DNA from: Opitutia bacterium
GTDB taxonomy: Bacteria > Verrucomicrobiota > Verrucomicrobiia > Opitutales > Opitutaceae
Direction of reading: 5' to 3'
NCBI GenBank assembly: GCA_016187945.1
Contig: JACPIT010000009.1
Coordinates: 434,001 to 498,000, forward strand
DNA length: 64,000 bases
Shown here: piece by piece, positions 1-15,460 of the stretch
How the letters are laid out: every line of letters starts with the position of its first letter
Position numbering within the stretch: the stretch's first letter is position 1
Notes under the pieces: model-generated
The model's database searches: none
What the model was told of the DNA's origin: nothing
The model's input: the letters and a program-made list of their open reading frames with translations, nothing else
Program-made: the position numbers and the translations under genes

Positions 1-73
1 CCGCGTGAACGCCGCCCACCGCGCGAGCCTCGCCGCGCCCGCCGTCATCCCGATCCCGTCCGCCCAACCATGA
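1..73 (+). CDS. 3' end of an upstream gene, cut by the window edge
   Basis: Reading from base 2 the frame is open and ends at the TGA at 71-73, giving a 23-residue tail (RVNAAHRASLAAPAV then IPIPSAQP). The stop overlaps the ATG of the next gene at 70 in an ATGA junction, the arrangement used at seven other junctions here, which is the main reason to think it is a real gene end. Nothing can be said about its product. The first frame is also open up to base 70, so an earlier start of the following glycosyltransferase cannot be excluded. Confidence 0.4.
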   Translation, partial: RVNAAHRASLAAPAVIPIPSAQP

Positions 74-1356
74 GCGTCCCACCGATCGACAAACGGCGCA
101 CGGCCGATCTCCCGCAACGCGTGCTCTTCGTGAACGACGTGGGCTTCCAATACGGGGCCGGCATCGCCCAAGCACGCCAGATCGAGGCCCTCCTCGCCCT
201 CGGCATCGAAGTCGGCGCCCTCGCGTGGGCGACCGGCGAGATCAAACTCGAGCATGTCGCCACGCGCCCCGTCGACCCGCAGCTCTGGCTCGGCCTGCGC
301 GAAGTCAACGGCCTCGAAGGCGACAAATTTCTCAGCGACCGCGCCGTCATTGCCGGTCTGCAATTGGAAGTCGCCCGCTTCAATCCGTCCGTGGTGCTCG
401 TCGGCAATCTCCATGCCGCACGCTGGAGCCTGCAGGTCCTCCCGGCGCTCCGCGAGATCGGGTGCCGCGTCGTCGCCTTCGTCCACGACGCCTACCTCTA
501 CACCGGACGCTGCGCCTACCCCGGAAATTGCGAACTCTACCTGACTGGCTGCAACGAGACCTGCCCCACCGCCGACGTTTACCCCCAGCTCGCCCCGCCG
601 CTCATCGCCGGCGCGTGGCAGCTCCGGCGCGAAGTGTTCGGCGGCGCGCACGGCATCGAAATCGTCGCGAACAGCCGTTGGAGCGAGCGCATGTTCCGCG
701 CCGCGGTGCCGCAATGCCCGCTCGTCGACACCGTTCATCTCGGCGCCGACGACCGCGTATTCCAGCCCGGCGACCGCTCCGCCGCCCGCCGCCATCTCGG
801 TCTGCCGGACGACAAACCCGTCGTGCTCTGCGCCGCGGTGAATTTTCAGGAATCCCGCAAAGGCGGCCCTGAACTCCGCGAGATCATCGCCGCTCTGCGA
901 GGCGAGGCGACGTTCGCCGCCTTCGGACACAACGCCGCGGAAATCCCCGGACTCATCGGTCTCGGCTATCATCTCCAGGCGCACCAACTCGCCACGATCT
1001 ATCAGGCGGCCGACATCTATCTCGGCACCGCGACCGAGGAGGCCTTCGGGCAGACGCTCATGGAAGCCCAGCTCTGCGGCGTGCCGGTGGTGGCTTTTCG
1101 CACCGGAGGTGTCGAGGAGATCGTGCAACACGACGTCACCGGAAAACTGGTTCGCAATCGCGACATTCCACAGACCATCGAAGCGATCCGCGCGACGCTC
1201 GCCGACCGCAGCTTCCGGGAGCGCGCAGGTGCACAAGCACGCGCCCACGCCGCACGATCGTTCGGCTTCGAGGCGCACGCACATCGCTGGCAGGCGTATC
1301 TGACCCAACAGCACTCTCCTGGTCCCGCCGAGGCGGGACGCGGTGCGGCGCGATGA
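70..1356 (+). CDS. GT4-family glycosyltransferase with a cysteine loop
   Basis: This is a cytosolic GT-B fold glycosyltransferase of 428 residues with no membrane segment. The N-terminal Rossmann half begins FVNDVGFQYGAGI (20-32). Residues 139-165 hold HDAYLYTG followed by Cys148, Cys154, Cys161 and Cys165, matching the 'HD..W.TG.C.Y..GC....GC..CP' loop of a WcaC-like branch of GT4 enzymes. The C-terminal donor site has the EX7E pair Glu324 and Glu332 in EEAFGQTLMEA, then GVPVVAFRTGGVEEIV. The ATG at 70 overlaps the previous stop, and the gene's own stop overlaps the next start by 4 bases (1353-1356), so it is probably translated together with the GT-C gene that follows. Donor and acceptor sugars cannot be read from the sequence. 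Confidence 0.85.
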   Translation: MSVPPIDKRRTADLPQRVLFVNDVGFQYGAGIAQARQIEALLALGIEVGALAWATGEIKLEHVATRPVDPQLWLGLREVNGLEGDKFLSDRAVIAGLQLEVARFNPSVVLVGNLHAARWSLQVLPALREIGCRVVAFVHDAYLYTGRCAYPGNCELYLTGCNETCPTADVYPQLAPPLIAGAWQLRREVFGGAHGIEIVANSRWSERMFRAAVPQCPLVDTVHLGADDRVFQPGDRSAARRHLGLPDDKPVVLCAAVNFQESRKGGPELREIIAALRGEATFAAFGHNAAEIPGLIGLGYHLQAHQLATIYQAADIYLGTATEEAFGQTLMEAQLCGVPVVAFRTGGVEEIVQHDVTGKLVRNRDIPQTIEAIRATLADRSFRERAGAQARAHAARSFGFEAHAHRWQAYLTQQHSPGPAEAGRGAAR

Positions 1357-4193
1357 TCGTCTTCTCGGTCCATTTTCTCCTGCTGGCGATCCTCTCTGGC
1401 GCGAGCGCCCGCCCGCTGACTCGGACGAGGAGCGAGCGCGCCCTCGCCGCGCTTTTGTTGGCGTGGGGGAACGTGGTGCTGACTTGCCTGCTGCTCTCGG
1501 CGGTCCATCAACTCGGCAGTTCCGGCTGGTTCTTCACCACCTCGGTCGCGCTCGCCGCGTGCGCCTGGTTTTTTCTGCGCCGGCTGACGCCGCTCGCCCC
1601 CGAGACCGCCGCGCCCGCTCCCGCTCGGTGGCTGAGGATTGCGTTCGTCGCCACGGTGGCCCCCATCGCGCTCGCCAACTTCAGCGTCGCGCTCAGCTAC
1701 GAGCCGAACAACTACGACTCGCTCACGTATCACCTGCCCCGCGCGATGTTCTACCTCGGGCAAGGCAGCCTGGGGCACTTCGACACCGGCAACGACCGGC
1801 AGATCTATTTTCCGTTTAACTATAATCTGCTGCATCTCTTCGGGCTCATCTACGGCCCGCCGCGGCAGGTTCTGACTTTATTCAACCTGCTCATGTGGGC
1901 CGCGGCCGGCGTGGCGGTCCACCGGCTGTCTCGTCTCGCGCTCCTCTCCGCCAACGTCTCGCTGCTGGCGGCGTGGTTCGCGCTGCTGGCGACGCAGACG
2001 CTCGCGCAAGCGACGTCGACCACCAACGACCTGCCGCTGGGCGCCGGTCTCGTCATCGCCTTGGTGTTCGCGTTGCGCTGGTCGCGATCGCACCAACGCC
2101 GCGACGCCATGCTCGCCGGTCTCGCGGCCGGATTGACCGCCGGCACCAAATTGACCGCGGTGTTCTTCGCACCCGCGGCGGGATTGCTCGCGCTGGTGTG
2201 GGGCTATCGCTGCTGGCGCGGAAGCCAGCTCGTGCAATTCGGTCGAGCGATTCGCGCCTGGGTGCTGCCCGGATTGCTCGCGCTCGCCGTGGCCGCTCCG
2301 TTCGCGATCATCAATCTGGCGGCGAAGGGCCAGTGGATGACCAGGAGTTACGACTACACGCTCAATCGCCCGCTCTCCGTCGGCTCGGCCGTGCAGACGG
2401 CCAAGGGTTACCTCGCACAGCTTTTTCTCGAGCCGCTCAGCCGGTTCGATTTCGATCAGGAGCGCATCAAGCGGATGAACGCGTGGGCCGATCGCACGCT
2501 GTTTTCCCACTGGAACGAAGCGCACGCGTTTTCGAAGTTCTACCTCTTCCCTCCCGACCTCACCGAGGACCATGTCTGGTTCGGTCTGACTGGTCCCGCC
2601 GTGCTGCTCGCCGCGCTGTGGTGCCTCGCCCGCTGGCGACGCATGGCTCCGCCAGTCGTCTGGTTGGCGTGGATCGGCCTCGGTTGGTTCGCCGTCTATT
2701 TTCTGCTCAACCGCTGGTCGCTCTACAATCAGCGCTACATGGTGCCCGCGATGCTGTTGATGACGCCTTGCCTCGCGGTCATGTGGGAAATCGATTGGAT
2801 CGGCAGCGCGGCTCGCCGAGGGTTTCGGGCGGCCCTTGCGGCCGTCGCGGTGGGCACGCTTTGGTTGGCCGGAACGTATCTGACGCAGAACACGCGTCGC
2901 CCGTTCATCCCGTTCTGGTCCGCCCGCATCGCACCGGCCGCGTTGCCGACGCTGCCCCCGCGCCTGGCCGATCGCCTCGCGATGGAACCTCACGTCAACA
3001 TCCAGGCCACCGACGGCAACGAGCGCATCTTCCTGCTGATGGCCGCGGGGCACCACCAGCGTTTCACTTCGTTCGCGCGACAGGTGCCGGACGCCTACAA
3101 CGTTTTTTCGCAGTGGGGTCTCGCCCGCAAAGTCGCCTACGTGAACATGGCGCAGCAGTCGTCCTACACGTTGGTGAAGATTCCGACGAAGCGCACGGCG
3201 GGAGTCGAGTTCCTGGGCTCGATCGGCACCGGCGTCGAGACACAGGACTACCTCGGTCTTCCGCCCAAGGCGAACGAACGACCGCCCCGCGGCAGCAACC
3301 GTCAGGTTCTCGTAGTGCTCAGCTACGCGCCCAGCGAACCCAATCGCTATCTGTTCACTCGCATTCAAATCGTCGGCTTGAATCCCGCCGATCAGGCGAG
3401 GCTGCGCGTCGGCGTCGAATACCAGGATCGCACCGAGGAAGTGTTGGCGACCTTCGACCGCTCAGGCGAAGCACCTGCATCCATCACCAAGCCCTTTCGC
3501 CGCTTCTTCGTTCGCGTCACCGACGAGGCGAGCGGCCAAGGGATCGGATCGGTCAGCGTCCCACGACTGATCCGGGAAAAGCCGCCGGAATTCGGGACGC
3601 CCTTCGAGCCGACCGTCATCTTCACGGACAAACTCGTCGCGAACGATCCGGTCAGCTACATCGCGACCACCGGCCTCGATAACGCCGAAGGCCCCTACCC
3701 ACAATGGCACCTCCCGCTGATTCGCTGGGCCCGGCAGCCGAGCGTGAAGCTCGAGATACCGGCAGACGACGATCTGGTGACGCTGCGGTTGACGTTCAGC
3801 CTCCGCAGCTTTGTGCGTGAGCGCGCCACGATCGCGCTGCTGCACAACGGCCAACTCGTGAAATACTACGACCTCGACGATCACAATGCGTGGATCGACG
3901 AGTCCCTCGCGCTCAAGCCCGCACCAGGCAAAAACGTGATCGAGTTCCGCAACGTCGCGCTCGGCTCGGCCGCAGACTGGCCGGACTATCTCGCCCGCTA
4001 TCCCGACGTGAAGGACTTCGTCGTTGCGCAGAAAATCCCGCCGGAGCAAGGTGCGCGCGAGCACTACGAAGCCTTTGGCCGCAAGGAGCGTCGCGTGCTT
4101 CATTTCAAGCACGACCTCGCCCCGTCGACTGTCGCCGATTCGCGCTACTATATTTTTCGCGACTTGGTGGTGGAAGGCCTGCGCGAACCGTGA
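1353..4193 (+). CDS. GT-C-like membrane glycosyltransferase with periplasmic beta domains (paralogue 1 of 4)
   Basis: A 946-residue polytopic membrane protein. Roughly residues 1-500 are hydrophobic helices. The first large outer loop carries NNYDSLTYHLPRAMFYLGQ (119-137), the loop type that holds the catalytic Asp (here Asp122) in GT-C enzymes using polyprenyl-phosphate sugars, followed by TTNDLP and GTKLTAVFFAPA. Residues ~540-946 are soluble and beta-rich, presumably periplasmic. Near the end, after a strand reading NVIEFRNV, comes DWPDYLARYPDV (from 875) and GAREHYEAFGRKERR, then a last strand YYIFRDLVVEGL. Two more intact paralogues follow directly. The core is GT39/PMT-like only by motif and topology; sugar and acceptor are unknown. 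Confidence 0.75.
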   Translation: MIVFSVHFLLLAILSGASARPLTRTRSERALAALLLAWGNVVLTCLLLSAVHQLGSSGWFFTTSVALAACAWFFLRRLTPLAPETAAPAPARWLRIAFVATVAPIALANFSVALSYEPNNYDSLTYHLPRAMFYLGQGSLGHFDTGNDRQIYFPFNYNLLHLFGLIYGPPRQVLTLFNLLMWAAAGVAVHRLSRLALLSANVSLLAAWFALLATQTLAQATSTTNDLPLGAGLVIALVFALRWSRSHQRRDAMLAGLAAGLTAGTKLTAVFFAPAAGLLALVWGYRCWRGSQLVQFGRAIRAWVLPGLLALAVAAPFAIINLAAKGQWMTRSYDYTLNRPLSVGSAVQTAKGYLAQLFLEPLSRFDFDQERIKRMNAWADRTLFSHWNEAHAFSKFYLFPPDLTEDHVWFGLTGPAVLLAALWCLARWRRMAPPVVWLAWIGLGWFAVYFLLNRWSLYNQRYMVPAMLLMTPCLAVMWEIDWIGSAARRGFRAALAAVAVGTLWLAGTYLTQNTRRPFIPFWSARIAPAALPTLPPRLADRLAMEPHVNIQATDGNERIFLLMAAGHHQRFTSFARQVPDAYNVFSQWGLARKVAYVNMAQQSSYTLVKIPTKRTAGVEFLGSIGTGVETQDYLGLPPKANERPPRGSNRQVLVVLSYAPSEPNRYLFTRIQIVGLNPADQARLRVGVEYQDRTEEVLATFDRSGEAPASITKPFRRFFVRVTDEASGQGIGSVSVPRLIREKPPEFGTPFEPTVIFTDKLVANDPVSYIATTGLDNAEGPYPQWHLPLIRWARQPSVKLEIPADDDLVTLRLTFSLRSFVRERATIALLHNGQLVKYYDLDDHNAWIDESLALKPAPGKNVIEFRNVALGSAADWPDYLARYPDVKDFVVAQKIPPEQGAREHYEAFGRKERRVLHFKHDLAPSTVADSRYYIFRDLVVEGLREP

Positions 4194-4217
4194 GCCCGCC
4201 GATCGCACCGCCGGACC

Positions 4218-7070
4218 ATGACCATACTCTTGATTCATCTGCTGCTGTTGTCGCTGCTCTCGTTTGCGGCTGCCCGCCGGGTGCTGACCGGGATGCTCGA
4301 TCGGATCGTCGCGGCCGCGTTTGTCGCTTGGAGCAACATCGTGGCGACCAGCCTGCTGCTCTCCAGCGCGGCGAAGCTCGCCGACGCCGCGTGGCTGTTC
4401 CGTGTCTCGATCGTGCTGGCGCTGGCGCTGTTTCTCGCGGTGCGAAAATTCGCACGCCCCGTCGCTCCCGAAACGACAGCCGCCGCCAGCGACTCGCTCA
4501 ATCCGTGGCTGCTCGGCGCTGCGCTCGGAAGCCTCGGGCTCATGCTGATCTCGAATCTCGCGATCGCCGCCGCCTACGAGCCGAACAACTACGACTCGAT
4601 GACCTACCACCTGCCGCGGGTGCTCTACTACCTCGGCCAAGGATCGCTGGCGCACTTCGAGACGGCCGACTTCCGGCAGGTCTACTATCCCTTCAATTTC
4701 AATCTGCTCCAACTGGTCTGCTTCGCCTACGAAGCGCCGCTCCGAGCCGTCAATTTCCTCAACGTCGCCGCGTGGGTCGTGACCGGACTTTCCGTATTCC
4801 GGATCGCTCGCCTGTGCGGCGCCAGCGTGAACGCATCGGTGGCGGCCGCCTGGCTGACGCTCACCGCCACGCAAGTGCTCGCGGAGGCGACCAGCACGAT
4901 CCTCGATTTGCCGGCCGCGGCGGCGCTCGCGGCCACCCTGGTCTTTGTTCTGCGCTGGCGCGACCAGCGTCGCACCGCCGATGCCCTGCTCGCCGGTGTG
5001 GCGGCCAGCATGTGCGCCGGCACCAAGCTCACCGCGGCCTTCTTCGCCCCGGCCGCCGCCGTGCTCTTCGTCGCGATCGCCTGGCGGCACTGGCGGCGCG
5101 GAGCGGTGCGCGAGCTGTTGACCGGCATTCGCGCCTGGCTGCTTCCAGTCGCACTCGCGGGCGTGCTGTGCGCGCCGTTCGTGCTCTTCAATCTGCGGGC
5201 GACGGGACGCCTGATGACCGACCGCATGGATTTCACGCTGAACAAGCCGTTCTCCGTCGCCTGCGCGCTTCAGACCACCAAGGGCTACCTGGTTCAGATG
5301 TTCTGCGAGCCGCTGGGCCGCTACTCGTTTGATCGGGAGCACATCGATGCGGTGAATCACTGGTTCGCGCAGCACGTCTTCCAAACCTGGAATCCGGCCC
5401 ACGCGTTTTCCGAGCTCTACCTGATCCCGCCCGATCTGAACGAAGACCACGTGTTCTTCGGTTTCGCCGGTCCGCTGTTTCTCCTCTGCGCGCTGTTCTG
5501 TCTCGTCCGCGACGCGCGCCTGCGCCGGCCCATTTCATGGATCGCGCTGCTGGGCGTCGGCTGGTTCGCGTTCTACTTCGCGACCAACAAATGGTCGCTC
5601 TACAACCAGCGGTATTTCATCTCCGCCGTGGTCATCCTCGGGCCTTGCGCCGCCGCCGTGTGGGACGCGCGCGTCGGACGGAATGCGGCGGTGAGGGCGA
5701 TCCTCGGCGCGATTTTTTGGTTCACGGCGCTGAGCGGACTTTGGTTCTCCGGACACTATCTGCTCAACAACCACATCCGCCCGCTACCCGGCGTCCAATC
5801 GCAGCCGGCGCAGACACTCCCGGCGCTGCCGGACACTCTCGCGGAGCGGCTCGCGCAGCAAGCCCGCCTCCAAGTCGTCTCCTACGGCACCAACGAGCGG
5901 ATTTTCCCGCTCTTGCACGTCGGTCGCCGCCAGCGCGTGACCTCCGGCTCTGCCATCCTGCCCGGCACCTACACGCTGTTCTCGTTCTGGGAGGCGACGC
6001 GGAACTGCATCTACAGCAATCTCGCCTACTACGCGTCCTACACGCTCGTTTCCGTCCCGGCCAAAACCACCGCCGGCGTCGAATTCCTCGGTAACATTCC
6101 CGGCGCCGGAGATGCGTTCGACTACGTCGGATTGCCAGCCGATGCCGATTCCGTCGCGGCCACTCGCGCGACGAGCAACATCGCTGTCATCGCGGAATAT
6201 TCCGCTGACACGAACGACCGCGTGCGCCTCGGGCACGGCCGCATCCGCGTCGTCGGCGTGAATCCCCGCGATTCCGCCCACGTCGTCATCGGCGCGGAGA
6301 TGGCCGACGGCGCCGTGCGGTCGCTGCTGTCGGTTTCTCACTCGGACTGGACCCGCGTCGCCGTGCCCGCGCCATTCAAGCGCCTGGTCATCCGCGTCGT
6401 CGACGACGCCACCGGCCGGCTTCTCGGATCGGGCGAGATGCCGTTCACGGTTTGGAAACTGATCCTCGAGACCAAACTGCCTCCCGCGCCCGACGCGCTC
6501 TTCAGCACGGAGCTGGTTTCCGGCGAACCGGCTCGCGTCCTCTCGGTGAACGGTCTCGCCGCGCTCGAGGGCCCTTACGCGCAATGGGACATGCCCGTCT
6601 TCCGCTGGGCCAAGCAACCCGCGCTGCAGATCACCGTTCCGCCTTATCCCAACTGCGCCCGCCTGCGGCTCAAGTTCAGCCTCCGCCTCCAGGTGCGCGA
6701 CGAGGCCGCGGTCGAGGTGCGGCACAACGGTCAACCCGTGCAAACTTTCCTGCTGAGCGGGCGCTTCGACTGGCACTCGCGAACGATCGACGTCGACGCC
6801 GCCCCCGGCACCAACGTCTTCGAGCTGCGAGACCGCACCAACGAACCCACTCCCGACTGGGTCGCCTACCTCGAGCGCAATCCGGACGTGCGGCGACACC
6901 TCGAATCGAAGGGCGAACCGCTGGAGGCCGGCGCGAGACGACACTACGAGACCAACGGCCGCACCGAAGGGCGCTTCCTGCCGGTGCGCGCCGGCGCGGC
7001 GGAGAAGCCGCGCGACTCGCTCTATTTCGCGTTTCGCAATCTCCGCGTGGAAGGGTTCCCCGCTCGATGA
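4218..7070 (+). CDS. GT-C-like membrane glycosyltransferase with periplasmic beta domains (paralogue 2 of 4)
   Basis: The 950-residue second member of the quartet aligns end to end with the preceding protein. It keeps NNYDSMTYHLPRVLYYLGQ (124-142) with candidate catalytic Asp126, then an altered ILDLP where the others have TNDLP, and GTKLTAAFFAPA. The C-terminal half again has a GLAALEGPYAQWDMPVFRW strand pair and the DWVAYLERNPDV ... ARRHYETNGRTEGR element (880-919), the form closest to the consensus 'NPDV...HY...G..EGR' seen in many glycan-related proteins. It begins 24 bases after the previous stop with no Shine-Dalgarno sequence. It probably transfers a sugar from a polyprenyl-phosphate donor outside the cytoplasmic membrane; its specificity may differ from its neighbours. 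Confidence 0.75.
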   Translation: MTILLIHLLLLSLLSFAAARRVLTGMLDRIVAAAFVAWSNIVATSLLLSSAAKLADAAWLFRVSIVLALALFLAVRKFARPVAPETTAAASDSLNPWLLGAALGSLGLMLISNLAIAAAYEPNNYDSMTYHLPRVLYYLGQGSLAHFETADFRQVYYPFNFNLLQLVCFAYEAPLRAVNFLNVAAWVVTGLSVFRIARLCGASVNASVAAAWLTLTATQVLAEATSTILDLPAAAALAATLVFVLRWRDQRRTADALLAGVAASMCAGTKLTAAFFAPAAAVLFVAIAWRHWRRGAVRELLTGIRAWLLPVALAGVLCAPFVLFNLRATGRLMTDRMDFTLNKPFSVACALQTTKGYLVQMFCEPLGRYSFDREHIDAVNHWFAQHVFQTWNPAHAFSELYLIPPDLNEDHVFFGFAGPLFLLCALFCLVRDARLRRPISWIALLGVGWFAFYFATNKWSLYNQRYFISAVVILGPCAAAVWDARVGRNAAVRAILGAIFWFTALSGLWFSGHYLLNNHIRPLPGVQSQPAQTLPALPDTLAERLAQQARLQVVSYGTNERIFPLLHVGRRQRVTSGSAILPGTYTLFSFWEATRNCIYSNLAYYASYTLVSVPAKTTAGVEFLGNIPGAGDAFDYVGLPADADSVAATRATSNIAVIAEYSADTNDRVRLGHGRIRVVGVNPRDSAHVVIGAEMADGAVRSLLSVSHSDWTRVAVPAPFKRLVIRVVDDATGRLLGSGEMPFTVWKLILETKLPPAPDALFSTELVSGEPARVLSVNGLAALEGPYAQWDMPVFRWAKQPALQITVPPYPNCARLRLKFSLRLQVRDEAAVEVRHNGQPVQTFLLSGRFDWHSRTIDVDAAPGTNVFELRDRTNEPTPDWVAYLERNPDVRRHLESKGEPLEAGARRHYETNGRTEGRFLPVRAGAAEKPRDSLYFAFRNLRVEGFPAR

Positions 7071-7124
7071 TCGCTTCCCCGCCCGCCACTCCACCACGCC
7101 CCTCCGGGAACGAAACGTTGCCTT

Positions 7125-7136
7125 CGGACCGGTCCG
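7125..7136. repeat. 12-base perfect palindrome in a spacer
   Basis: CGGACCGGTCCG is a perfect palindrome in the 93-base spacer between two GT-C paralogues, 27 bases before the downstream ATG. It could be an operator-like site or chance in GC-rich DNA. No -35/-10 pair is recognisable beside it. Confidence 0.25.
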
Positions 7137-7163
7137 GCTGAGAACGTCGACGCGTTTCGCGCC

Positions 7164-10010
7164 ATGTATCTGTTCGTGTTCCACAGCGTCTTCCTGATCG
7201 GAGCCTCCTCCGCCGCCGCGGCGCGGCTCGTCGCGACGCTGTCCGATCGTTTGATCGCCACCTTCGTCGTCGCGTGGACCAACATCGTCGTCACGTGCCT
7301 CCTGCTCGCCTCGCTGCATCGTCTCGGCGACTCGGGCTGGTTTCTGCGCACGTCACTCGTGCTTGCGGCGCTCACCTGGTTCCTGCTTCGCCGCCGGGCA
7401 CCCGCCGCTCCCGCGCCGCGTGCGGCTGGCGAACGTTTCTCTCCCGCGCTCGTCGCGGTTTTCTGCCTGAGTCTGGCGCCGATCGCTTGGGCGAATCTTC
7501 GCATCGCCGCGACCTACGCGCCGAACAACTTCGACTCGCTGGCGTATCACCTTCCCCGCGCCATGTTCTATCTCGGGCAGGGAACGCTCGCCCACTTCGA
7601 CACGGGCAACGACCGCCAACTGTTTTTCCCCTTCAACTACAATCTGCTCCAAGCGTTCGGCTTCGTGCACGGCGCCCCGCTTCAGGCGCAGAATTTTTTC
7701 AATCTCGCGACGTGGGCGATGGCCGGCATCGCCGTCTACCGGCTCAGCCGACTCTGCGCTTGCACTCCGAATGCCGGACTCGTCGCGACCTGGCTGGCGC
7801 TGACCTCGACGCAAATTCTCGCGCAAGCCACCGCCACAACCAACGACCTGCCGACCGGCGCCGCGCTGCTCGGCGCACTCGTGTTCGCCCTGCGCTGGCG
7901 CGAGACGCGAATCGCGAGCGACGCGACGATCGCCGGTCTCGCGCTGGGCCTCGGCGTCGGCTCGAAGCTCACGGTCATCTTCTTCGCTCCGGTCGTCGGT
8001 TTGATCGGCGCCGGATGGCTGCTCCAGAGCTGGCGCACCGGCCGATTGCCGGCGTTTTTCGCCGGCGTCCGCGGCTGGATCTGGCCCGGCCTCGTGGCCG
8101 TCGCGCTGGCCTCGCCTTTCGCAATCGTCAACCTCGTCGAAAAAGGCAAGTGGGTGACCAACACCTACGACTACACCCTGAATCGACCGTTCAAGTTCGC
8201 CTCGTCGATCCAGACCGCCGAAGCCTACCTCGCCCAGCTATTCATCGAACCCGTGCAACGTTTCACGTTGGACGTCGGTTTCACCGAACGGTTGAACGCC
8301 TGGGGCAGTCGCGTGCTTTTCCCGCATTGGAACGGTGCCTACGCGTTTTCGCCGTTCTACCTCTTCCCGCCCGATCTCAACGAAGATCACGTGTGGTTCG
8401 GCTTCACCGGCGCGTTCGTGGTCTTGGTTGCGATCGGCAGCCTGTTGCGTTTTCGCCGGGTGAGTCCTCCCGTGTTGTGGCTGGCCGCGCTCGGCCTGGG
8501 GTGGTTCGCAACGTATTTCCTCCTGAACAAGTGGTCGCTCTACAACCAGCGCTACTTCGTGCTGCCCGTGCTGGTGCTTTGTCCCGGCCTGGCTGTCGTC
8601 GCCGATGCGCGCCTGACGCGTCCGCTGCTGCAACGCGGCCTCCACTTGCTCCTCGCACTCCTCGCGCTCTCGGCGCTGTGGATGAGCGGCATTTATCTGT
8701 TCAAGAATTCCAGCCGCTCCTACGAGCCGTTCTGGTCCGGCTATGTCCCGCCTCCGGCCCTGCCCGCGCTGCCGCCCGTGATGGCCCAGCGCCTCGCCGA
8801 ACAACGCCGGATCAACATCGACACTGCCGACGGCAACGAGCGCATTTTCCTCCTCATGAGCGTCGGCGAAGGCCAGCGCTTCACCGCCTCGGCTCACGTC
8901 CGACCCGGCGTCTACAATGTCTTTTCCGAATGGCGATTTCCCCGCCGCGTCGCCTACAGCAACATCGAGCAGACCTCCTCCCACACGATCGTGCCGGTCG
9001 CGGGCAAGCACACGGCGGGAATCGAGTTTCTCGGCACCATCGGCACCGGCGTGGCGGCGCTGGATTACTACGGTCTCGCCCCCGAGCCCGATCAAACGGC
9101 CGCCACGGACCGGGATTCAAACATCCTCGTCAAGTTGCTCTACGCCCCGCGCGAGCCCGGTCGCTATGCCGGCATGCGGATCAAAGTCGCCGGCCTGAAC
9201 GCGCCCGATCGCGTGCGTCTCCGCGCGGAGGTCGAATATGCGGACGGCTCGATTGCTCCCCTCGTCTCTTTCACCGCGAGCGGCGAACAGCCGGCGCCGA
9301 TCACTCGCCCCTTCCGCCGCATCCTTCTGCGAGCGGAAAAACTGAGTGACGGCCAGACGGTGGGCAGCACGGCGATTCCCTATCTGTTCCGCGTCCTGCC
9401 GCCGGAAATCGATGTGCCCGATTCGCCCGACCTGCTCTTCGCCGATGAACTCGTGCTGCCCAAGCCCGTCACATCGTTCGTCGTCACCGGCCTCGCAGCC
9501 CCGGAGGGCCCTTACCCGCCGCGCGATCTTCCGCTGGTCCGCTGGGCGAAGTCGCCCGTGGTGCGGATCGAGATCCCGCCCACCCGTCTGCTCGACCATC
9601 TCGAGTTCGAATTCAGTGCCCGTCTCCAAGTGCGGTCCGCCGGCAGCATCGATGTGGTTTTCAACGGCGAGCCCGTCGCCAATTTTGCGCTCGGAGGCCG
9701 CGACAAATGGGTCGACGGCAAGGTCCGCCTCACTCCCGCCGCGGGGACGAATGTCATCGAGCTGCGCAACGTCGTCGTCAGCGACGAGCCCGACTGGCTC
9801 GACTATCTCGAACGCTATCCCGACGTGAAAGCCTACGTCGTCGCGCAGGGCATTCCGCTTGAACAAGGCGCGCGCCGCCACTGGGAATCGTTTGGGCACA
9901 AGGAAACCCGCACGCTGCACATGCGCCGCAGCGTGGTCACTCTCGACGATCCCGCTCAGCTCTACTACCTGTTCCGCTCCATCCGCATTTTCGGCTACCG
10001 CCAACCATGA
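7164..10010 (+). CDS. GT-C-like membrane glycosyltransferase with periplasmic beta domains (paralogue 3 of 4)
   Basis: The 948-residue third paralogue is closer to the first than to the second: the loop reads NNFDSLAYHLPRAMFYLGQ (121-139, candidate catalytic Asp124), and HFDTGNDRQLFFPFNYN, TTNDLP and the periplasmic TADGNERIFLLM segment are shared. The late element is DWLDYLERYPDV ... ARRHWESFGHKETR (877-916), with Trp for Tyr in the HYE part. The gene follows a 93-base spacer that holds a 12-base palindrome (7125-7136) and no clear promoter. Its stop overlaps the start of the acyltransferase by 4 bases (10007-10010), linking acyl decoration of the glycan to this enzyme set. Confidence 0.75.
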   Translation: MYLFVFHSVFLIGASSAAAARLVATLSDRLIATFVVAWTNIVVTCLLLASLHRLGDSGWFLRTSLVLAALTWFLLRRRAPAAPAPRAAGERFSPALVAVFCLSLAPIAWANLRIAATYAPNNFDSLAYHLPRAMFYLGQGTLAHFDTGNDRQLFFPFNYNLLQAFGFVHGAPLQAQNFFNLATWAMAGIAVYRLSRLCACTPNAGLVATWLALTSTQILAQATATTNDLPTGAALLGALVFALRWRETRIASDATIAGLALGLGVGSKLTVIFFAPVVGLIGAGWLLQSWRTGRLPAFFAGVRGWIWPGLVAVALASPFAIVNLVEKGKWVTNTYDYTLNRPFKFASSIQTAEAYLAQLFIEPVQRFTLDVGFTERLNAWGSRVLFPHWNGAYAFSPFYLFPPDLNEDHVWFGFTGAFVVLVAIGSLLRFRRVSPPVLWLAALGLGWFATYFLLNKWSLYNQRYFVLPVLVLCPGLAVVADARLTRPLLQRGLHLLLALLALSALWMSGIYLFKNSSRSYEPFWSGYVPPPALPALPPVMAQRLAEQRRINIDTADGNERIFLLMSVGEGQRFTASAHVRPGVYNVFSEWRFPRRVAYSNIEQTSSHTIVPVAGKHTAGIEFLGTIGTGVAALDYYGLAPEPDQTAATDRDSNILVKLLYAPREPGRYAGMRIKVAGLNAPDRVRLRAEVEYADGSIAPLVSFTASGEQPAPITRPFRRILLRAEKLSDGQTVGSTAIPYLFRVLPPEIDVPDSPDLLFADELVLPKPVTSFVVTGLAAPEGPYPPRDLPLVRWAKSPVVRIEIPPTRLLDHLEFEFSARLQVRSAGSIDVVFNGEPVANFALGGRDKWVDGKVRLTPAAGTNVIELRNVVVSDEPDWLDYLERYPDVKAYVVAQGIPLEQGARRHWESFGHKETRTLHMRRSVVTLDDPAQLYYLFRSIRIFGYRQP

Positions 10011-11158
10011 ACGCCGTCCCGTCCTCGCCCACGCCCGCCACGGAGCGAAACCTCTACATCGACGCGCTCCGCGGCTGGAGCATATTCGGCGTCGTCTGCA
10101 TTCACTTCGCCGGCAGCTTCGTCACGTCCGACAGTTTCGCGTGGAGCCCCTCTTTTCTCCTCGGTCTCGCGCTCAACCAAGGGTTCATCTTCGCCGTCCC
10201 GCTCTTTGTTTTTCTCTCCGGGCTGCTCGCGTCGTCCTCCCGCCGCGAAGTATCGCTGGCCGACTACTATCGCGGCCGGTTCCGTCGTATTGTCGTTCCC
10301 TATCTCGTCGCCAGTCTCGCGGCGTTCTTCCTTCTCAACCACTACCTCGCCTGGCTCGATCTGCACTACGCAGGCCGTCGCGCCGTCTGGCTGCTCGAGC
10401 GCTTGTTGCTGAAGGGCGTCGAGCCGACCTTCTATTTCATCCCGATGATCCTGCAGCTCTACCTGCTGCAACCGCTCTTCAAGGCCCTGCCCCGCTGGCT
10501 CAACCGTCTGTCGCCCGCTCTGACGACCGATCGCGCCGCGCTCGGCCTGATGGCGTTCTTCCTCGCGCTCCACGTCACGCTCGGCGTCCTTTGCAATCGC
10601 AACGTCCTCGATTACTACGTCTGGGGGCGCCCCAACGGCCTGTTCTGGGCGTTCTACTTTTTCGCCGGCCTGCACTTCGAAAGCGTCCGCCACGCCGTGA
10701 CGCCGCGTCTCGCCCGCGCCGGCCGCGCGATCGCGCTCCTCGCAGCGGGACTGGCCGTGGTTTGGAACTTCAGCATGATTTTCGACATCGACGTCGTCGG
10801 CGGGAGCTTCGAGCGCAATCGCCTCGATTACGCCTATGTCCGGCCCGAAATGCTGATCTACGATCTCGCGGTCGTGGCCATCCTCGCAACGGGCCTCCTC
10901 CTCGGCTCGACCGCTCGTCGCGGCCTCGCGACCTACGTCGGACGCTTCACCTTGGAGATTTACCTCTGGCACATCATCGTCCTCTACTACGGCGCGTGGC
11001 GCTACGCCGGCGCGATCGCGTCGTGCCGCGAGCTGCCCGAGTTGATCGTCGTGCTCGCCGCGTCCGCGACGCTGCTCATCGCCTTCGCGGCCGACGGCTG
11101 GTATCGCCTCAAGGACTTCGTGCGGCACCATCGCCTCCGTCTCGTGCGCGTCGGCTAA
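10007..11158 (+). CDS. Acyltransferase-3 (OafA/NodX-like) membrane protein
   Basis: This 383-residue polytopic protein belongs to the acyltransferase-3 superfamily, which moves acetyl or other acyl groups onto sugars of exported glycans. The N-terminus carries the family signature NLYIDALRGWSIFGVV followed by CIHF, with Asp19, Arg22 and His33 as the usual conserved residues. About ten hydrophobic helices follow, with FYFIPMILQLYLLQP (about 143-157) in the position of the 'W.l...e..fYl..P' region. Its ATG overlaps the stop of the preceding GT-C gene. No SGNH esterase-type extension is present, so any second catalytic step needs another protein. O-acetylation of the product of this locus is the simplest role. 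Confidence 0.88.
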   Translation: MNAVPSSPTPATERNLYIDALRGWSIFGVVCIHFAGSFVTSDSFAWSPSFLLGLALNQGFIFAVPLFVFLSGLLASSSRREVSLADYYRGRFRRIVVPYLVASLAAFFLLNHYLAWLDLHYAGRRAVWLLERLLLKGVEPTFYFIPMILQLYLLQPLFKALPRWLNRLSPALTTDRAALGLMAFFLALHVTLGVLCNRNVLDYYVWGRPNGLFWAFYFFAGLHFESVRHAVTPRLARAGRAIALLAAGLAVVWNFSMIFDIDVVGGSFERNRLDYAYVRPEMLIYDLAVVAILATGLLLGSTARRGLATYVGRFTLEIYLWHIIVLYYGAWRYAGAIASCRELPELIVVLAASATLLIAFAADGWYRLKDFVRHHRLRLVRVG

Positions 11159-11239
11159 CGGCCCGAAATCGCTGTGGACACGAGGCACGGAGCCGGGCTT
11201 TTTGGTCGATTCAAACCTAACGGCCTCACGACAGAAATC

Positions 11240-12190
11240 ATGGCTTCTTCCCCTTCTCCCTCCCCCTTGCGCGTCGCGGTGGCGATTCCTTGTTATCAGG
11301 AAGAGAAGACCATCGCGAAAGTCGTCACGGATTTCAAAGTCGAGCTGCCGGACGCCGCCATCTACGTCTTCGACAACAACTGCACCGACCGCACCGCCGA
11401 ATTCGCCCGCGCCGCCGGAGCCACGGTGATCCGCGAGAAACGGCAGGGCAAAGGCTACGTCGTGGCGTCGATGTTCGAGCTGATCACCGAAGACGTCATC
11501 GTGATGGTGGACGGCGACGGCACCTACGACTCCTCCGCGGTTCACCGCCTGCTCGAACCGATCTTCCGCGGCGACGCCGACATGACCGTCGCCGCGCGCC
11601 TGCAGCAATACAGCGACAAGTCCTTCCGCAAATTCCACGTCGCCGGCAACCAGCTCGTCTGCGCGATCATCAACCGCATCTTCAACGCGCGCATCTCGGA
11701 CATCTTTTCCGGCTACCGCGCGTTCACGCACGAGTGCGCGCTCTCGATCCCGATCACGTCGCGCGGCTTCGACGTCGAGACGGAACTCACGGTGCAAAGC
11801 CTCTACCGCGGCGCCGTCATCCAGGAAATCGAAGCGCCCTACGGCGAGCGTCCGTCAGGCAGTTTCTCCAAGCTGCGCACTTTCCCCGACGGCTTCCGCG
11901 TGCTGCTGCGCCTGTTTCTCCTGATGCGCGCCTACAAGCCGCTCACGCTCTTCGGTGGCCTGGGCCTTCTCGCGCTCGCAGGCAGCGCCGCCTTCGCGGT
12001 GTTGCCGTTCGTCGAACTCGTCGAATACCACCGCGTCGTCAGCCGCGCCTCCGCCATTCTTTCGATCACCAGCTTCATGCTCGCGTGCCTCAGCTTCTCC
12101 CTCGGCCTCGTGCTGAGCACCACGAATCAAAGACTGCTCGAGCTCGAACGCGTGCTCATCAAGCGAGTCCGGCGCTTCAACGCCGAATGA
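11240..12190 (+). CDS. GT2 polyprenyl-phosphate glycosyltransferase (DPM1-like) with C-terminal membrane anchor
   Basis: A GT-A fold family 2 enzyme of 316 residues. VAIPCYQEEKTI (15-26) is the nucleotide-binding start, DNNCTDRT supports UDP/GDP binding, and VMVDGDGTYD (88-97) supplies the metal-binding DXD. Two hydrophobic segments close the protein (about 240-300), typical of synthases that load one sugar onto undecaprenyl phosphate. I chose the ATG at 11240 because the frame extends 22 codons upstream without homology-like sequence. Such enzymes make the donors that GT-C transferases consume, so it fits with the surrounding GT-C genes. It differs clearly from the second synthase at 21881, lacking that protein's QDPPE and GEYIGRIYEE motifs. 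Confidence 0.82.
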   Translation: MASSPSPSPLRVAVAIPCYQEEKTIAKVVTDFKVELPDAAIYVFDNNCTDRTAEFARAAGATVIREKRQGKGYVVASMFELITEDVIVMVDGDGTYDSSAVHRLLEPIFRGDADMTVAARLQQYSDKSFRKFHVAGNQLVCAIINRIFNARISDIFSGYRAFTHECALSIPITSRGFDVETELTVQSLYRGAVIQEIEAPYGERPSGSFSKLRTFPDGFRVLLRLFLLMRAYKPLTLFGGLGLLALAGSAAFAVLPFVELVEYHRVVSRASAILSITSFMLACLSFSLGLVLSTTNQRLLELERVLIKRVRRFNAE

Positions 12191-12196
12191 CGGCAC

Positions 12197-12799
12197 GTGG
12201 CGCTCATGGGCACCAAGGACTTTAACGCACTCGATCTCTTCATCTGCCGCTGGCGCTCGCGCGCCGTGCGCAAGCTCGTGCCTTCCGGCGCCACCGTGCT
12301 GGACTTCGGTTGCGGCCATCAGGCGATGTTCCTGCGCTCCGTGCAGCACGACATCAAATATGGACTCGGCATCGACTACGACGCCACGCCGGAGCGTCCC
12401 GCCCCCAATCTGGAATTGCGGCAGTTCCGGTTCGAGAACCGGTTCGACTTTCCGGACGCCAGTTTCGATCTCGTCACCATCCTCGCCGTGCTCGAGCACA
12501 TCCCGCTCGATCGAGTCGACGTGCTCTTTCGCGAGTTCTCCCGCATCCTCGTCCCCGGCGGCCGCATTCTGGTGACGACGCCCACGCCGGCGGCGAAGCC
12601 TGTGTTGGAGTTTCTCGCGTTCCGCCTGAAAATCATCTCCGCCGCGGAAATCGCCGATCATCGCCACTACTACACCGAACAGGATCTGATGAAATTGGCC
12701 GCGCGGAACGGCCTGACTTGTCCCGCCTATCGTCGTTTTCTCTGGGGTTTCAACGGGGTGGCTGTCATGCAAAAGCCCGGCCTCGGCGCCGCCGTCTGA
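12197..12799 (+). CDS. Class I SAM-dependent methyltransferase
   Basis: A compact 200-residue soluble protein with the Rossmann signature VLDFGCGHQAMF (34-45) as motif I, FPDASFDLVTILAVLEHI as motif IV, and a post-core strand RILVTTPTPA. It begins 6 bases after the GT2 synthase, at GTG 12197 or ATG 12206. The SxxxE/HYYTEQDL region near 155 is common in the methyltransferase-11/23 group found in glycan clusters. The likely role is methylation of a sugar or lipid-linked sugar intermediate, but the substrate is not evident. Confidence 0.8.
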   Translation: MALMGTKDFNALDLFICRWRSRAVRKLVPSGATVLDFGCGHQAMFLRSVQHDIKYGLGIDYDATPERPAPNLELRQFRFENRFDFPDASFDLVTILAVLEHIPLDRVDVLFREFSRILVPGGRILVTTPTPAAKPVLEFLAFRLKIISAAEIADHRHYYTEQDLMKLAARNGLTCPAYRRFLWGFNGVAVMQKPGLGAAV

Positions 12800-12814
12800 T
12801 TCGCCGCCCCAGCG

Positions 12815-15460
12815 ATGGACCTGCTGTTCATTCATCTGACTTTGCTCTTGTGGTTGTCGGTGGCGGCATCCCGCCGCTGGACCGACTGCGCTTCGGAAAC
12901 GCTGTTGGGCGCCGCCGCTCTGGCGTGGATCAACCTGCTGGTCACGGCACTGCTGCTGTCGTGCGTCCACCGATTCGGCGACGTGCGCCTCGGTCTGATC
13001 GCCTCCGTCGGATTGGCGGGAGGAGTGGCTTTGCTGGCGTGGCGCCACCCATTGGCCGATCGCCGTCCCGCCGACAGCGCCGTCGGGCATCCCGCGCCGC
13101 ACTACAGCGTCATGCTCACGCTGGCGCTGCTCGCAGCGGGCAGCGTCGTCGTCGCAGCCTTCTACGTGTCGCTCGATCCCAACACACTCGGCAACGCTCT
13201 GCCGCGCGCGCTGCAATATCTGGGCGACGGCAGTCTTTTCTCCGGCGCCAGCGGCGAGGCGAGCCGCACCTACTTCACTCACAACTACGGCGTCCTGCAC
13301 GCGTGGATACTCGCCTACAAACCGGAGCTGACTGCGCTGAACTTCGTCAATCTGACGATTTGGCTGCTGAGTGGGTGCGCCGTCCACCGCTTCTGCCACG
13401 TCGCGGGAGCCAGCCGCGACGCCTCGTTGCTCGCCACCGGATGCGCCCTGACGGCACGACCGGTGCTCACGCAGGCGATCACACTGGATCACCACCTTGC
13501 GGCTGGCGCCGCGCTCGTTGCAGGCGCCGCCTTTATCCTCGCGTGGTCCAAAGACGGACGGAAGTCCTCGGCCTTTTGGGGCGGCGCGTTCGCCGGACTC
13601 GCGGGAGGCAGCAGTCTCGGCGCGGCGGCGGTCGTCGTGTCCCTTTCGGCTTTGGCCGCCATGGGACCGCTCCGCGTGCGTCAGCGCGGCGGCTGGAGTT
13701 TCATTCTGCCCGGGCTGGCCGTCGGGCTGCTCCCGACGCTCGTCAGCTTCGCCCTGGCGGTCGGCCACGATTCCCTCGCCCGACTCGTCGCCAACGCGAT
13801 TGCGAGCGAAACGGCGACGCTGGATTTCGCACCGGCTCGCGGCGTCGGCGGAGTCGTGACGAACCTCGTGACGAGCACGGGAATCGCCGGATCTCTTTGC
13901 CTCGGCGCGGCGCTCTTCAGCATCGGCCGCGCACGCCGCGAAGCGAATCCCATTTCCCGGTTGGGCCTGCTCGGACTCGGCTGGGCCCTCGTCATGGCGC
14001 TGCCGGCGCTGGCGACCCGCCACTCGCCGCAACTCGCACCGGCGCTTCTCCTGACCGCTCCGTGCATCGCCGCCGCCCTGGATCTGGCAGCACTCGCGCG
14101 GAGCCGCTGGATCGCGATTGCCGCGGTATTCCTGATAATTTCCGTTTGGTCCGGCCGCTCCGACCTGATCCACGACGCTCGACGTCCCTTGGGACCGCTG
14201 CTCGATGCGAGCCAGCCGAGGCTCAGTTCCACCAAGCTTCGGGCCGCGCTGAAACAGCGGTTCGACCAACAGACACGGATCAACATCAGCCCGCCCGCGG
14301 ACCAGGGCCCTTCGAGCGACTCGTCCGATCTCGCCGTGCGTTCACCCAGCTACGACCGCGTGCGAACGGACGCCTACAATATCTTTTCCCGGCCGCACAA
14401 CGCCCACAACCGCGCTTTGAGCCGTTTGCACCTTGGGCCCGCCTACGTTTTGATTCCGTTTCCCGGCAAACCGACACCCGGCGTCGAGCCGCTCGGCAGC
14501 ACCGCCGATGAGGCAGCCGACCGCGACTATTTTGGCATCGCCGGCCGGGCCGACCTCCAAGTGCTCGACAATAACGGCCTCTTGCTCGCGACGGTCGAAC
14601 GGCAAACCAGCACCGAAGCACAGCCCCGACTGTTAATCGACGCCCAGGGACTGAATCGACCCGACGACGCCTGTCTCGAAGTCTTCGCGGAAACCGAAGA
14701 CGGACAAAGCGCGCTGCTCGCGACGTTCTCCCGCTCGGGAGAACAAACCGCCGCGCTCCCGGCCTCCGTCCGCGCGCTTCGTTTTCGCCTGCGGAACGCC
14801 GGCGCCGAAGGCGCGCCCCGAGGCACCGCGGTTCTCGAAGCGCTGCCGCCGGACCAATACGTCGCGTCCGCTTCCCGCGATCCACGAGTCTCGTTCGCCC
14901 ATGAGCTGGTGGCGCGTGACGCTCCTCCGTCGATCGCGACAGATCGCAAGCTCCTGCCCGCCGAGGGGCCTTTCCCCGATTCGGCGCTGCCCCTCATCCG
15001 CTGGATGCGCTCCGACCGCATCGCGCTTCGCGTCCCTGCGGTCGCCGGCGTCAAGACGCTGCGGCTGAGCCTCAGCGCGCGGCTCTATCGAAGGCACCAG
15101 GGCATTCTGGAGATAATCTGCAACGGGCAGCCGGTGCGGCGCCTCGAATTCGACGATGCCGAGCGCTGGCAGGACATCTCACTGGAGTTTGCCGCTCGCA
15201 CCGAAACCAACACGATCGAACTGCATGAGCTGCCACCCCCGCCGGGGCCCGACTGGGGCGAATATTTGAACCGCTATCCCGACGTGCGGCGTCATGTGGA
15301 AATGATGCGAAAACCGCTCATCGACGGCGCGCGCGAACACTACGAAGCCTGCGGACGCGCGGAAGGCCGCACCGTCGTGCTCGTCGCAGCGCCGCAACTC
15401 GCCCCCGACACCTATTTCTATATGTTCCGCAGCCTGCGCGTGGAGGGACTCCGTCCATGA
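12815..15460 (+). CDS. Degenerate GT-C-like membrane protein (paralogue 4 of 4), probably catalytically dead
   Basis: This 881-residue protein matches the three paralogues at 1353-10010 over its whole length, including helices, the periplasmic half and the final DWGEYLNRYPDV ... AREHYEACGRAEGR element (813-852). Its catalytic loop has decayed: where the others read NNYDSLTYHLPR it has LDPNTLGNALPR (120-131), with loss of three positions and of the Asp, Tyr and His. TTNDLP has become TLDHHL, and GTKLTAVFFAPA has become GSSLGAAAVVVS. The frame is intact and the soluble domain well kept, so this is not an ordinary pseudogene; a binding, scaffolding or partner role is possible. Its stop overlaps the next ATG by 4 bases. 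Confidence 0.75.
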   Translation: MDLLFIHLTLLLWLSVAASRRWTDCASETLLGAAALAWINLLVTALLLSCVHRFGDVRLGLIASVGLAGGVALLAWRHPLADRRPADSAVGHPAPHYSVMLTLALLAAGSVVVAAFYVSLDPNTLGNALPRALQYLGDGSLFSGASGEASRTYFTHNYGVLHAWILAYKPELTALNFVNLTIWLLSGCAVHRFCHVAGASRDASLLATGCALTARPVLTQAITLDHHLAAGAALVAGAAFILAWSKDGRKSSAFWGGAFAGLAGGSSLGAAAVVVSLSALAAMGPLRVRQRGGWSFILPGLAVGLLPTLVSFALAVGHDSLARLVANAIASETATLDFAPARGVGGVVTNLVTSTGIAGSLCLGAALFSIGRARREANPISRLGLLGLGWALVMALPALATRHSPQLAPALLLTAPCIAAALDLAALARSRWIAIAAVFLIISVWSGRSDLIHDARRPLGPLLDASQPRLSSTKLRAALKQRFDQQTRINISPPADQGPSSDSSDLAVRSPSYDRVRTDAYNIFSRPHNAHNRALSRLHLGPAYVLIPFPGKPTPGVEPLGSTADEAADRDYFGIAGRADLQVLDNNGLLLATVERQTSTEAQPRLLIDAQGLNRPDDACLEVFAETEDGQSALLATFSRSGEQTAALPASVRALRFRLRNAGAEGAPRGTAVLEALPPDQYVASASRDPRVSFAHELVARDAPPSIATDRKLLPAEGPFPDSALPLIRWMRSDRIALRVPAVAGVKTLRLSLSARLYRRHQGILEIICNGQPVRRLEFDDAERWQDISLEFAARTETNTIELHELPPPPGPDWGEYLNRYPDVRRHVEMMRKPLIDGAREHYEACGRAEGRTVVLVAAPQLAPDTYFYMFRSLRVEGLRP

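What the first reader, a model, noticed from the sequence alone, without database searches (positions are those of the whole stretch)
3975..15370. 'YPDV...GA..HYE..GR.EGR' element inserted in the last beta domain of four GT-C paralogues
Seen: all four large paralogues carry DW..YL.RYPDV ... AR.HYE..G..E.R at 3975-4094, 6855-6974, 9792-9911 and 15251-15370, between the penultimate strand (NVIE[FL]R) and the last strand (YY.FR.L.V.G). Related 'NPDV...HY...GR.EGR' elements occur elsewhere as free or tandem units in glycan-related proteins. Here it is nested in a periplasmic domain of a transferase, and it is kept even in the catalytically decayed copy, which suggests binding (glycan, peptidoglycan or partner protein) rather than catalysis.
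Basis: partly seen in the sequence, partly recalled or inferred. Interest (0 to 1): 0.7.

Follow-up and report, generated by a model that had tools for sequence, protein, structure and literature searches.

The report
Helical mini-domain inserted in membrane glycosyltransferases
Four related membrane enzymes that probably build a cell-surface sugar polymer each carry the same small helical module, slotted into a domain that looks sugar-binding; the module also turns up in other glycan enzymes and secreted proteins, is in neither of the two general protein-family libraries searched, and may help hold the growing sugar chain.

Summary
All four GT-C paralogues carry the 40-residue element at the stated coordinates, between the last two strands of the C-terminal beta-sandwich. 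AlphaFold2 folds it as three short helices at high confidence, so it is not a disordered tail. It is present in 27 of 29 homologous reading frames from 17 related loci; the other two end before this domain. It is absent from a sister GT-C family whose strands run straight through the site: most simply one insertion, later doubled in tandem in two genomes. It belongs to a wider module family (profile match E 2.8e-11; 200 column shuffles at best 0.0011) seen singly or in tandem in glycosyltransferases, methyltransferases, RTX and small secreted proteins. Pfam, NCBIfam and PDB sequences gave no match. The five copies found in this genome lie within 16.5 kb of one glycan cluster, the fifth in a GT2-type gene just upstream of the window. 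Best reading: a non-catalytic binding module added to an Emb-like GT-C with a CBM-like domain, most likely holding the glycan acceptor. Ligand binding is inferred, not shown.

The parts
1353..4193 (+). GT-C paralogue 1 (946 aa), catalytic Asp motif PNNYD kept
   Evidence: (PMT_2 E 9e-07)
3975..4094 (+). Inserted helical module, D875-R914; helices 876-882, 884-892, 897-909 in the model
   Evidence: pLDDT block means 81-94 over it
3933..3974 (+). Penultimate strand before the insertion (aa 861-874)
4149..4181 (+). Last strand after the insertion (aa 933-943), reached through a weakly modelled linker (block mean pLDDT 60)
4218..7070 (+). GT-C paralogue 2 (950 aa)
   Evidence: PMT_2 E 2.1e-06
6855..6974 (+). 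Inserted helical module of paralogue 2 (NPDV form)
7164..10010 (+). GT-C paralogue 3 (948 aa), whole protein modelled
   Evidence: PMT_2 at its cut-off; mean pLDDT 84.9; Foldseek: Emb complex, oligosaccharyltransferases, PglB, ArnT
9792..9911 (+). Inserted helical module of paralogue 3; helices 878-884, 886-894, 899-911 in the model
12815..15460 (+). GT-C paralogue 4 (881 aa), catalytic Asp and two conserved motifs lost
15251..15370 (+). Inserted helical module kept in the decayed paralogue
70..1356 (+). Glycosyltransferase (Glycos_transf_1) of the same cluster (context)
10007..12799 (+). Context genes: acyltransferase (Acyl_transf_3), GT2, methyltransferase

Best explanation
The element is a member of a widespread family of about 40-residue non-catalytic modules (three short helices, single or tandem). 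One copy was inserted between the last two strands of a CBM6/35-like beta-sandwich at the C-terminus of an Emb-like periplasmic GT-C glycosyltransferase, before the paralogues arose. I think it works as an accessory binding surface that helps this domain hold the acceptor glycan next to the membrane active site. The decayed paralogue would keep the module because it still holds the glycan or positions the partners without transferring sugar. Shown: fold prediction, family membership, conservation, absence from the sister family, cluster co-occurrence. Inferred: one insertion event, periplasmic side, CBM-like nature of the host domain. Not shown: binding and the ligand.
For: Fold: three confident helices between the last two strands. 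Insertion: eight sister-family proteins, one of them from this same genome, show no module. With residues 873-930 (module and linker) cut out, the profile alignment runs across the site to the last strand (93 columns, E 2.8e-07); with them left in it stops at the site (78 columns, E 1.7e-06); one of the 9 rows on the sister side was a wrong-frame artefact. Module family: hhalign A1 against A6 (A6 holds no window copy) Prob 97.2, E 2.8e-11; 200 column shuffles of A1 at best 20.7 and 0.0011. A6 finds 3 of the 4 window copies at E 2e-5 to 2.5e-4 (limit 0.001), missing the 4218 copy. Glycan link: of 20 module-bearing proteins scanned, 8 are glycosyltransferases, 7 methyltransferases, 1 PhyH dioxygenase, 1 RTX protein, 3 without family. 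Binding rather than catalysis: module identity between the proteins without and with the catalytic Asp is 0.48, against 0.32 in the membrane part. Same cluster: the five copies found in this genome lie in 16.5 kb, and in 12 of 17 homologous loci an upstream frame, by its place the GT2 gene, also has the module. Host domain: whole-protein Foldseek is led by an EmbA-EmbB complex, and CBM35 chains are among the matches of the C-terminal model. A glycan is the simplest ligand shared by a GT2 protein (presumably cytoplasmic), a periplasmic domain and secreted RTX proteins.
Against: No binding data. The most conserved residues (W, Y, PD, A, H, G, E, R) could be the core and caps of a mini-fold rather than a binding face; no model coordinates were available to decide. 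The last strand is better kept than the module between proteins without and with the Asp (0.59 against 0.48), and within the three proteins without the Asp the module (0.49) is hardly better kept than the rest of its domain (0.47). Some carriers are not beside polysaccharide genes: the small secreted three-module protein of one genome lies beside RNase E/G, RodA, DUF2062 and histidine-kinase genes, and the second genome looks alike by printed ends. Foldseek matches are weak overall (TMq 0.2-0.3), mix in unrelated beta-rich proteins (for example Cry toxins, iota toxin pore, a phage tail fibre), and do not say which part of the model the CBM35 chains match. In one studied GT-C with a CBM (ORF12, GT136) the CBM bound the glycan but was not needed for transfer (PMC11127046, section 10 read).
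Confidence: 0.45

Rival explanations
1. Protein docking: modules bind each other or a common partner, so that the enzymes of one glycan pathway are held together, as adaptor repeats do.
For: Different enzymes of one cluster share the module; up to five copies in one protein (L095, in two blocks) look like adaptor repeats; two GT-C genomes doubled it in tandem; decayed paralogues keep it.
Against: The same module would need partners on both sides of the inner membrane and outside the cell; no scaffold protein is known to me here, and none was searched for.
Confidence: 0.27
2. Structural cap: the module merely braces the edge of the beta-sandwich or packs against the membrane domain, without a ligand of its own.
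For: One fixed insertion site in the family; strongly kept aromatic, Pro and Gly residues; its 41-residue window is only marginally the most conserved of the C-terminal part (0.6075 against 0.6069 for the next non-overlapping one).
Against: Sister proteins do without it; it is doubled in tandem, and it stands as three repeats after a likely signal peptide (judged by eye) in two small proteins.
Confidence: 0.2
3. Peptidoglycan or cell-envelope anchoring, tying the transferase to the wall.
For: Secreted and RTX carriers; the three-module protein lies near a RodA gene.
Against: 15 of the 20 carriers scanned are glycosyltransferases or methyltransferases, most of which, if cytoplasmic as their families suggest, would not meet the wall.
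Confidence: 0.08

Closest known systems
Mycobacterial EmbA/EmbB/EmbC arabinosyltransferases (GT-C with C-terminal lectin-like CBM); EmbC C-terminal domain, PMC3044687 (passages read)
   Same: GT-C membrane enzyme with a two-part C-terminal region, one part a CBM-like beta-sandwich near CBM families 6 and 36; chains of an EmbA-EmbB complex are the top Foldseek matches of the whole model
   Different: No helical module of this family appears in the passages read; overall similarity here is weak (TMq 0.29), and donor and acceptor are unknown
ORF12 of Citrobacter youngae O1, founder of GT136 (PMC11127046, passages and section 10 read)
   Same: GT-C with a C-terminal CBM that binds the polymer it modifies
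   Different: No inserted helical module mentioned in what I read; there the CBM proved dispensable for transfer under the conditions tested
CBM35 / CBM6 carbohydrate-binding modules
   Same: C-terminal model matches CBM35 chains (2w1w, 106 columns, TM 0.47 by target); weak Pfam CBM_6 match at 820-868 of paralogue 3 (E 0.086)
   Different: Below Pfam's cut-off; a helical module lies between the last two strands; ligand untested
DUF4214 (recalled as a small domain spread over RTX proteins, glycosyltransferases and methyltransferases)
   Same: By recall only, a similar spread of host proteins
   Different: No DUF4214 match listed for 15 window-type or 26 general modules at E up to 10

Membership tests
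YPDV/HY/EGR module family (general, profile A6) | Profile match over F..YL..[NYH]PDV...HY..G..EGR | tested here: met
   hhalign Prob 97.2, E 2.8e-11; shuffled controls at best 20.7 and 0.0011; A6 finds 3 of 4 window copies at E 2e-5 to 2.5e-4
YPDV/HY/EGR module family (general, profile A6) | Occurs in different host proteins, alone or in tandem | tested here: met
   tandem copies inside the GT-C insertion of L077/L110 (apparently one contig) and L111
GT-C glycosyltransferases | Multi-helix membrane part of GT-C fold | tested here: met
   Pfam PMT_2 reaches its cut-off in 3 of 4 paralogues (exactly at it in one), the 12815 protein has no such match; Foldseek of the 7164 protein to Emb complex, PglB, oligosaccharyltransferases, ArnT
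GT-C glycosyltransferases | Catalytic Asp in the first large external loop | tested here: met
   PNN[YF]D in 3 of 4 window paralogues, lost in the 12815 protein; that this is the catalytic Asp is by analogy
Emb-like GT-C with C-terminal CBM | C-terminal extracytoplasmic CBM-like beta-sandwich | tested here: inconclusive
   Weak structural matches to the Emb complex and CBM35; no Pfam CBM above cut-off
Emb-like GT-C with C-terminal CBM | Arabinosyl donor and arabinan acceptor | not testable with these tools
   No substrate data
CBM6/CBM35 | Sequence match to the family model | tested here: not met
   CBM_6 E 0.086, 13.6 bits against a cut-off of 28.9, in one of four proteins
DUF4214 | Match to the Pfam model | tested here: not met
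   None listed at E up to 10 among 15 and 26 modules

The most novel reading that the evidence does not exclude
The module is a general mini-lectin for the cell's own surface polymer. In this cluster the GT2 glycosyltransferase, the periplasmic GT-C enzymes and even a catalytically dead GT-C all grip the same glycan with the same 40-residue fold, and related secreted proteins use it to stay on the coat. It would be a shared 'handle' that passes a polymer across the membrane and out of the cell.
Probability: 0.25. Interest if true: 0.78.

Novelty: new variant of a known kind. Interest (0 to 1): 0.56.

Why it matters
CBM-like domains on GT-C enzymes are known (PMC3044687, PMC11127046); for a helical module slotted into one, and shared with a GT2 protein of the same cluster, I found no paper in searches, which were narrow (mostly motif strings) and limited to open-licence papers. 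The module has no match in Pfam or NCBIfam although it recurs in Verrucomicrobiota, Alphaproteobacteria and Cyanobacteria, so naming it would annotate many unexplained regions in glycan and RTX proteins. If it binds glycan, it gives a small, expressible probe for how bacteria keep hold of long surface polymers during synthesis.

Tried and rejected
Disordered tail: rejected by the models. Homologues lacking it throughout: not so for the family; it is lacking only in the sister family. Catalytic role: not supported, since proteins without the catalytic Asp keep it and it occurs in unrelated enzymes. Known family: none in Pfam or NCBIfam, PHROGs (window-type modules only) or PDB sequences; isolated weak values such as DUF2934 0.011, MHB 0.16 or PDB 2fic 0.15 concern single members or chains. 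Phage origin: no match in 50,697 phage records with one query at E up to 1. Literature on the module: searches (motif strings) gave no paper on it (87 listed one unrelated paper).

Full report
The observation. Two letters of its consensus are not universal: NPDV in the 4218 protein and RHWE in the 7164 protein. In a six-frame profile search of the whole genome these four places score E 1.4e-23 or better; the next is 0.04 at 432880 of the same contig and the last a partial match at 2.16 on another contig. The 0.04 place lies just before the window (window start 434001), in an open frame of 1082 codons with GT2 domains: FNDKAYLRAHPDVADAVAKGHFHSAWDHYMLFGEREYR.

The fold. AlphaFold2 on residues 540-946 of the 1353 protein with 25 further sequences gives mean pLDDT 88. 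The element is three helices (876-882, 884-892, 897-909) between strand 861-874 and the last strand 933-943; only the linker after it is weak (block mean 60). The whole-length model of the 7164 protein (mean pLDDT 84.9) repeats this. Foldseek on the whole model is led by an EmbA-EmbB complex, with oligosaccharyltransferases, PglB, ALG9 and ArnT among the first 31, mixed with beta-rich proteins such as modular xylanases and Cry8Ea1. On the C-terminal part it finds carbohydrate-active modular enzymes and CBM35 chains, but also a phage tail fibre and toxin structures. TM-scores are low, so I use these as a class label only. The side of the membrane is inferred: with 14 helices taken from the model, the catalytic-Asp loop and the C-terminal region fall on the same side, and basic residues lean to the other side in several loops (77-93, 429-434, 482-486), a mild trend.

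An insertion, not an ancestral part. In 17 loci, all titled as metagenome-assembled genomes of Opitutae or Verrucomicrobia, 29 open frames match these proteins. Of these, 27 carry the element, and the other two frames stop before this domain (L063 and L064 are nearly identical). A sister GT-C family, found with the L012 protein in 11 of 115 genomes, includes a copy in this same genome (L120). Of its 13 frames listed (one a wrong-frame artefact, two the same protein) none has a module by the window-type profile, and the general profile gives a single hit at E 9.7. Eight of them were taken, with the artefact, for a profile comparison with the last domain. The alignment runs across the site to the final strand only when residues 873-930 (module and linker) are removed (93 columns, E 2.8e-07; with them 78 columns, E 1.7e-06). 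Two genomes carry two modules in tandem inside the insertion, with periods of 53 and 52 residues (L077, apparently the same contig as L110, and L111). Whether that is one event or two was not resolved.

Conservation. Over 26 family members (the window's four included) mean pairwise identity is 0.61 in the module, 0.45 and 0.44 in the two parts of the C-terminal region before it, 0.28 in the linker, 0.53 in the last strand and 0.51 in the membrane part. Its 41-residue window ranks first of 361 in the C-terminal part, by a hair, and 30th of 908 overall. Three of the 26 lack the catalytic Asp, the 12815 protein among them; two more keep the Asp but lack the NKWSLYNQRY motif. Between the three and the other 23, identity is 0.48 in the module, 0.59 in the last strand, 0.29-0.33 in the rest of the C-terminal region apart from the linker (0.15), and 0.32 in the membrane part. 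Among the three alone the module (0.49) is hardly better kept than the domain around it (0.47).

A wider module family. The upstream-gene type was found by similarity in 10 of 57 relatives and in 45 and 53 plasmid records with two queries at E up to 1 (the genera shown are mostly alphaproteobacteria, with a few cyanobacteria). As profile A6 it was found in 51 of 387 genomes of the phylum (45 of 311 of good quality, where at most 18 candidates per genome were scored). A6, which holds no window copy, aligns with the window-type profile A1 at Prob 97.2, E 2.8e-11; 200 column shuffles of A1 reach at best Prob 20.7 and E 0.0011, and the reversed profile 0.1 and 0.43. In the 20 module-bearing proteins that I scanned with Pfam (16 of the 30 loci and 4 plasmid proteins), 8 are glycosyltransferases, 7 methyltransferases, one a PhyH oxygenase, one an RTX protein and 3 have no family. 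The other 14 loci were not scanned; by their printed ends they look like copies of these, 8 of them of the upstream GT2 gene. Two genomes have a small protein made of a likely signal peptide (by eye) and three modules. In L093 the module sits in the C-terminal part of a different protein that looks multi-helical and has no Pfam family. No model of the module was found in Pfam, NCBIfam or (window type only) PHROGs, and no sequence relative in the PDB.

Cluster context. The copies found in this genome lie between 432.8 and 449.4 kb of one contig, in a cluster with a Glycos_transf_1 protein, a GT2, an acyltransferase, a methyltransferase and a further PMT-like protein. In 12 of the 17 homologous loci an upstream frame, by its place the GT2 gene (not scanned with Pfam there), also shows the general module; the other five were not followed further upstream.

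How it most likely works. EmbC work indicates that a GT-C enzyme can use a C-terminal CBM to hold its acceptor polymer (PMC3044687, passages read), and ORF12/GT136 shows such a domain binding the polymer although transfer does not need it (PMC11127046, section 10 read). I therefore read the host domain as an acceptor-holding domain and the module as an addition to its binding surface. The same module in a GT2 protein of the same cluster, in periplasmic domains and in secreted proteins suggests a ligand present in all those places, and the glycan itself is the simplest. That step is inference. Protein docking fits nearly as well, and a purely structural role cannot be excluded because the conserved residues could all be core.

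Verdict. Observation confirmed; interpretation partly supported. Module identity and insertion are well founded (my estimate 0.9); function as a glycan-holding module is my best guess (0.45). It is a new variant of a known kind, GT-C with a CBM-like domain, carrying a module that is absent from the family libraries searched.

Noticed in passing
L038:10825-14073 (G000:C12, just before window base 1): GT2-type protein with the canonical form of the module in its middle; same cluster as the window's GT-C genes.
   Followed up: yes
L112:7052-7726 and L113:6693-7265: Small proteins that are little more than a likely signal peptide and three tandem modules; in L112 next to DUF2062, RNase E/G and RodA genes, in L113 the neighbours look alike by printed ends.
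   Followed up: partly
L093 (G208:C33:37875-37997): A different, apparently multi-helix membrane protein without Pfam family carries the module in its C-terminal part: possibly a second, independent insertion.
   Followed up: no
G096, G108, G125, G198: Small genomes of the same class with 8 to 12 module copies each, several in tandem; those looked at (L095, L097, L100) are in glycosyltransferases and methyltransferases.
   Followed up: partly
L070:9996-12716 and L073:9989-12736: GT-C homologues that keep the catalytic Asp but lack the NKWSLYNQRY motif: a possible intermediate stage of decay.
   Followed up: no
L096 (G388:C27:61976-62095): Module in front of a phytanoyl-CoA dioxygenase-like (PhyH) domain.
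   Followed up: no
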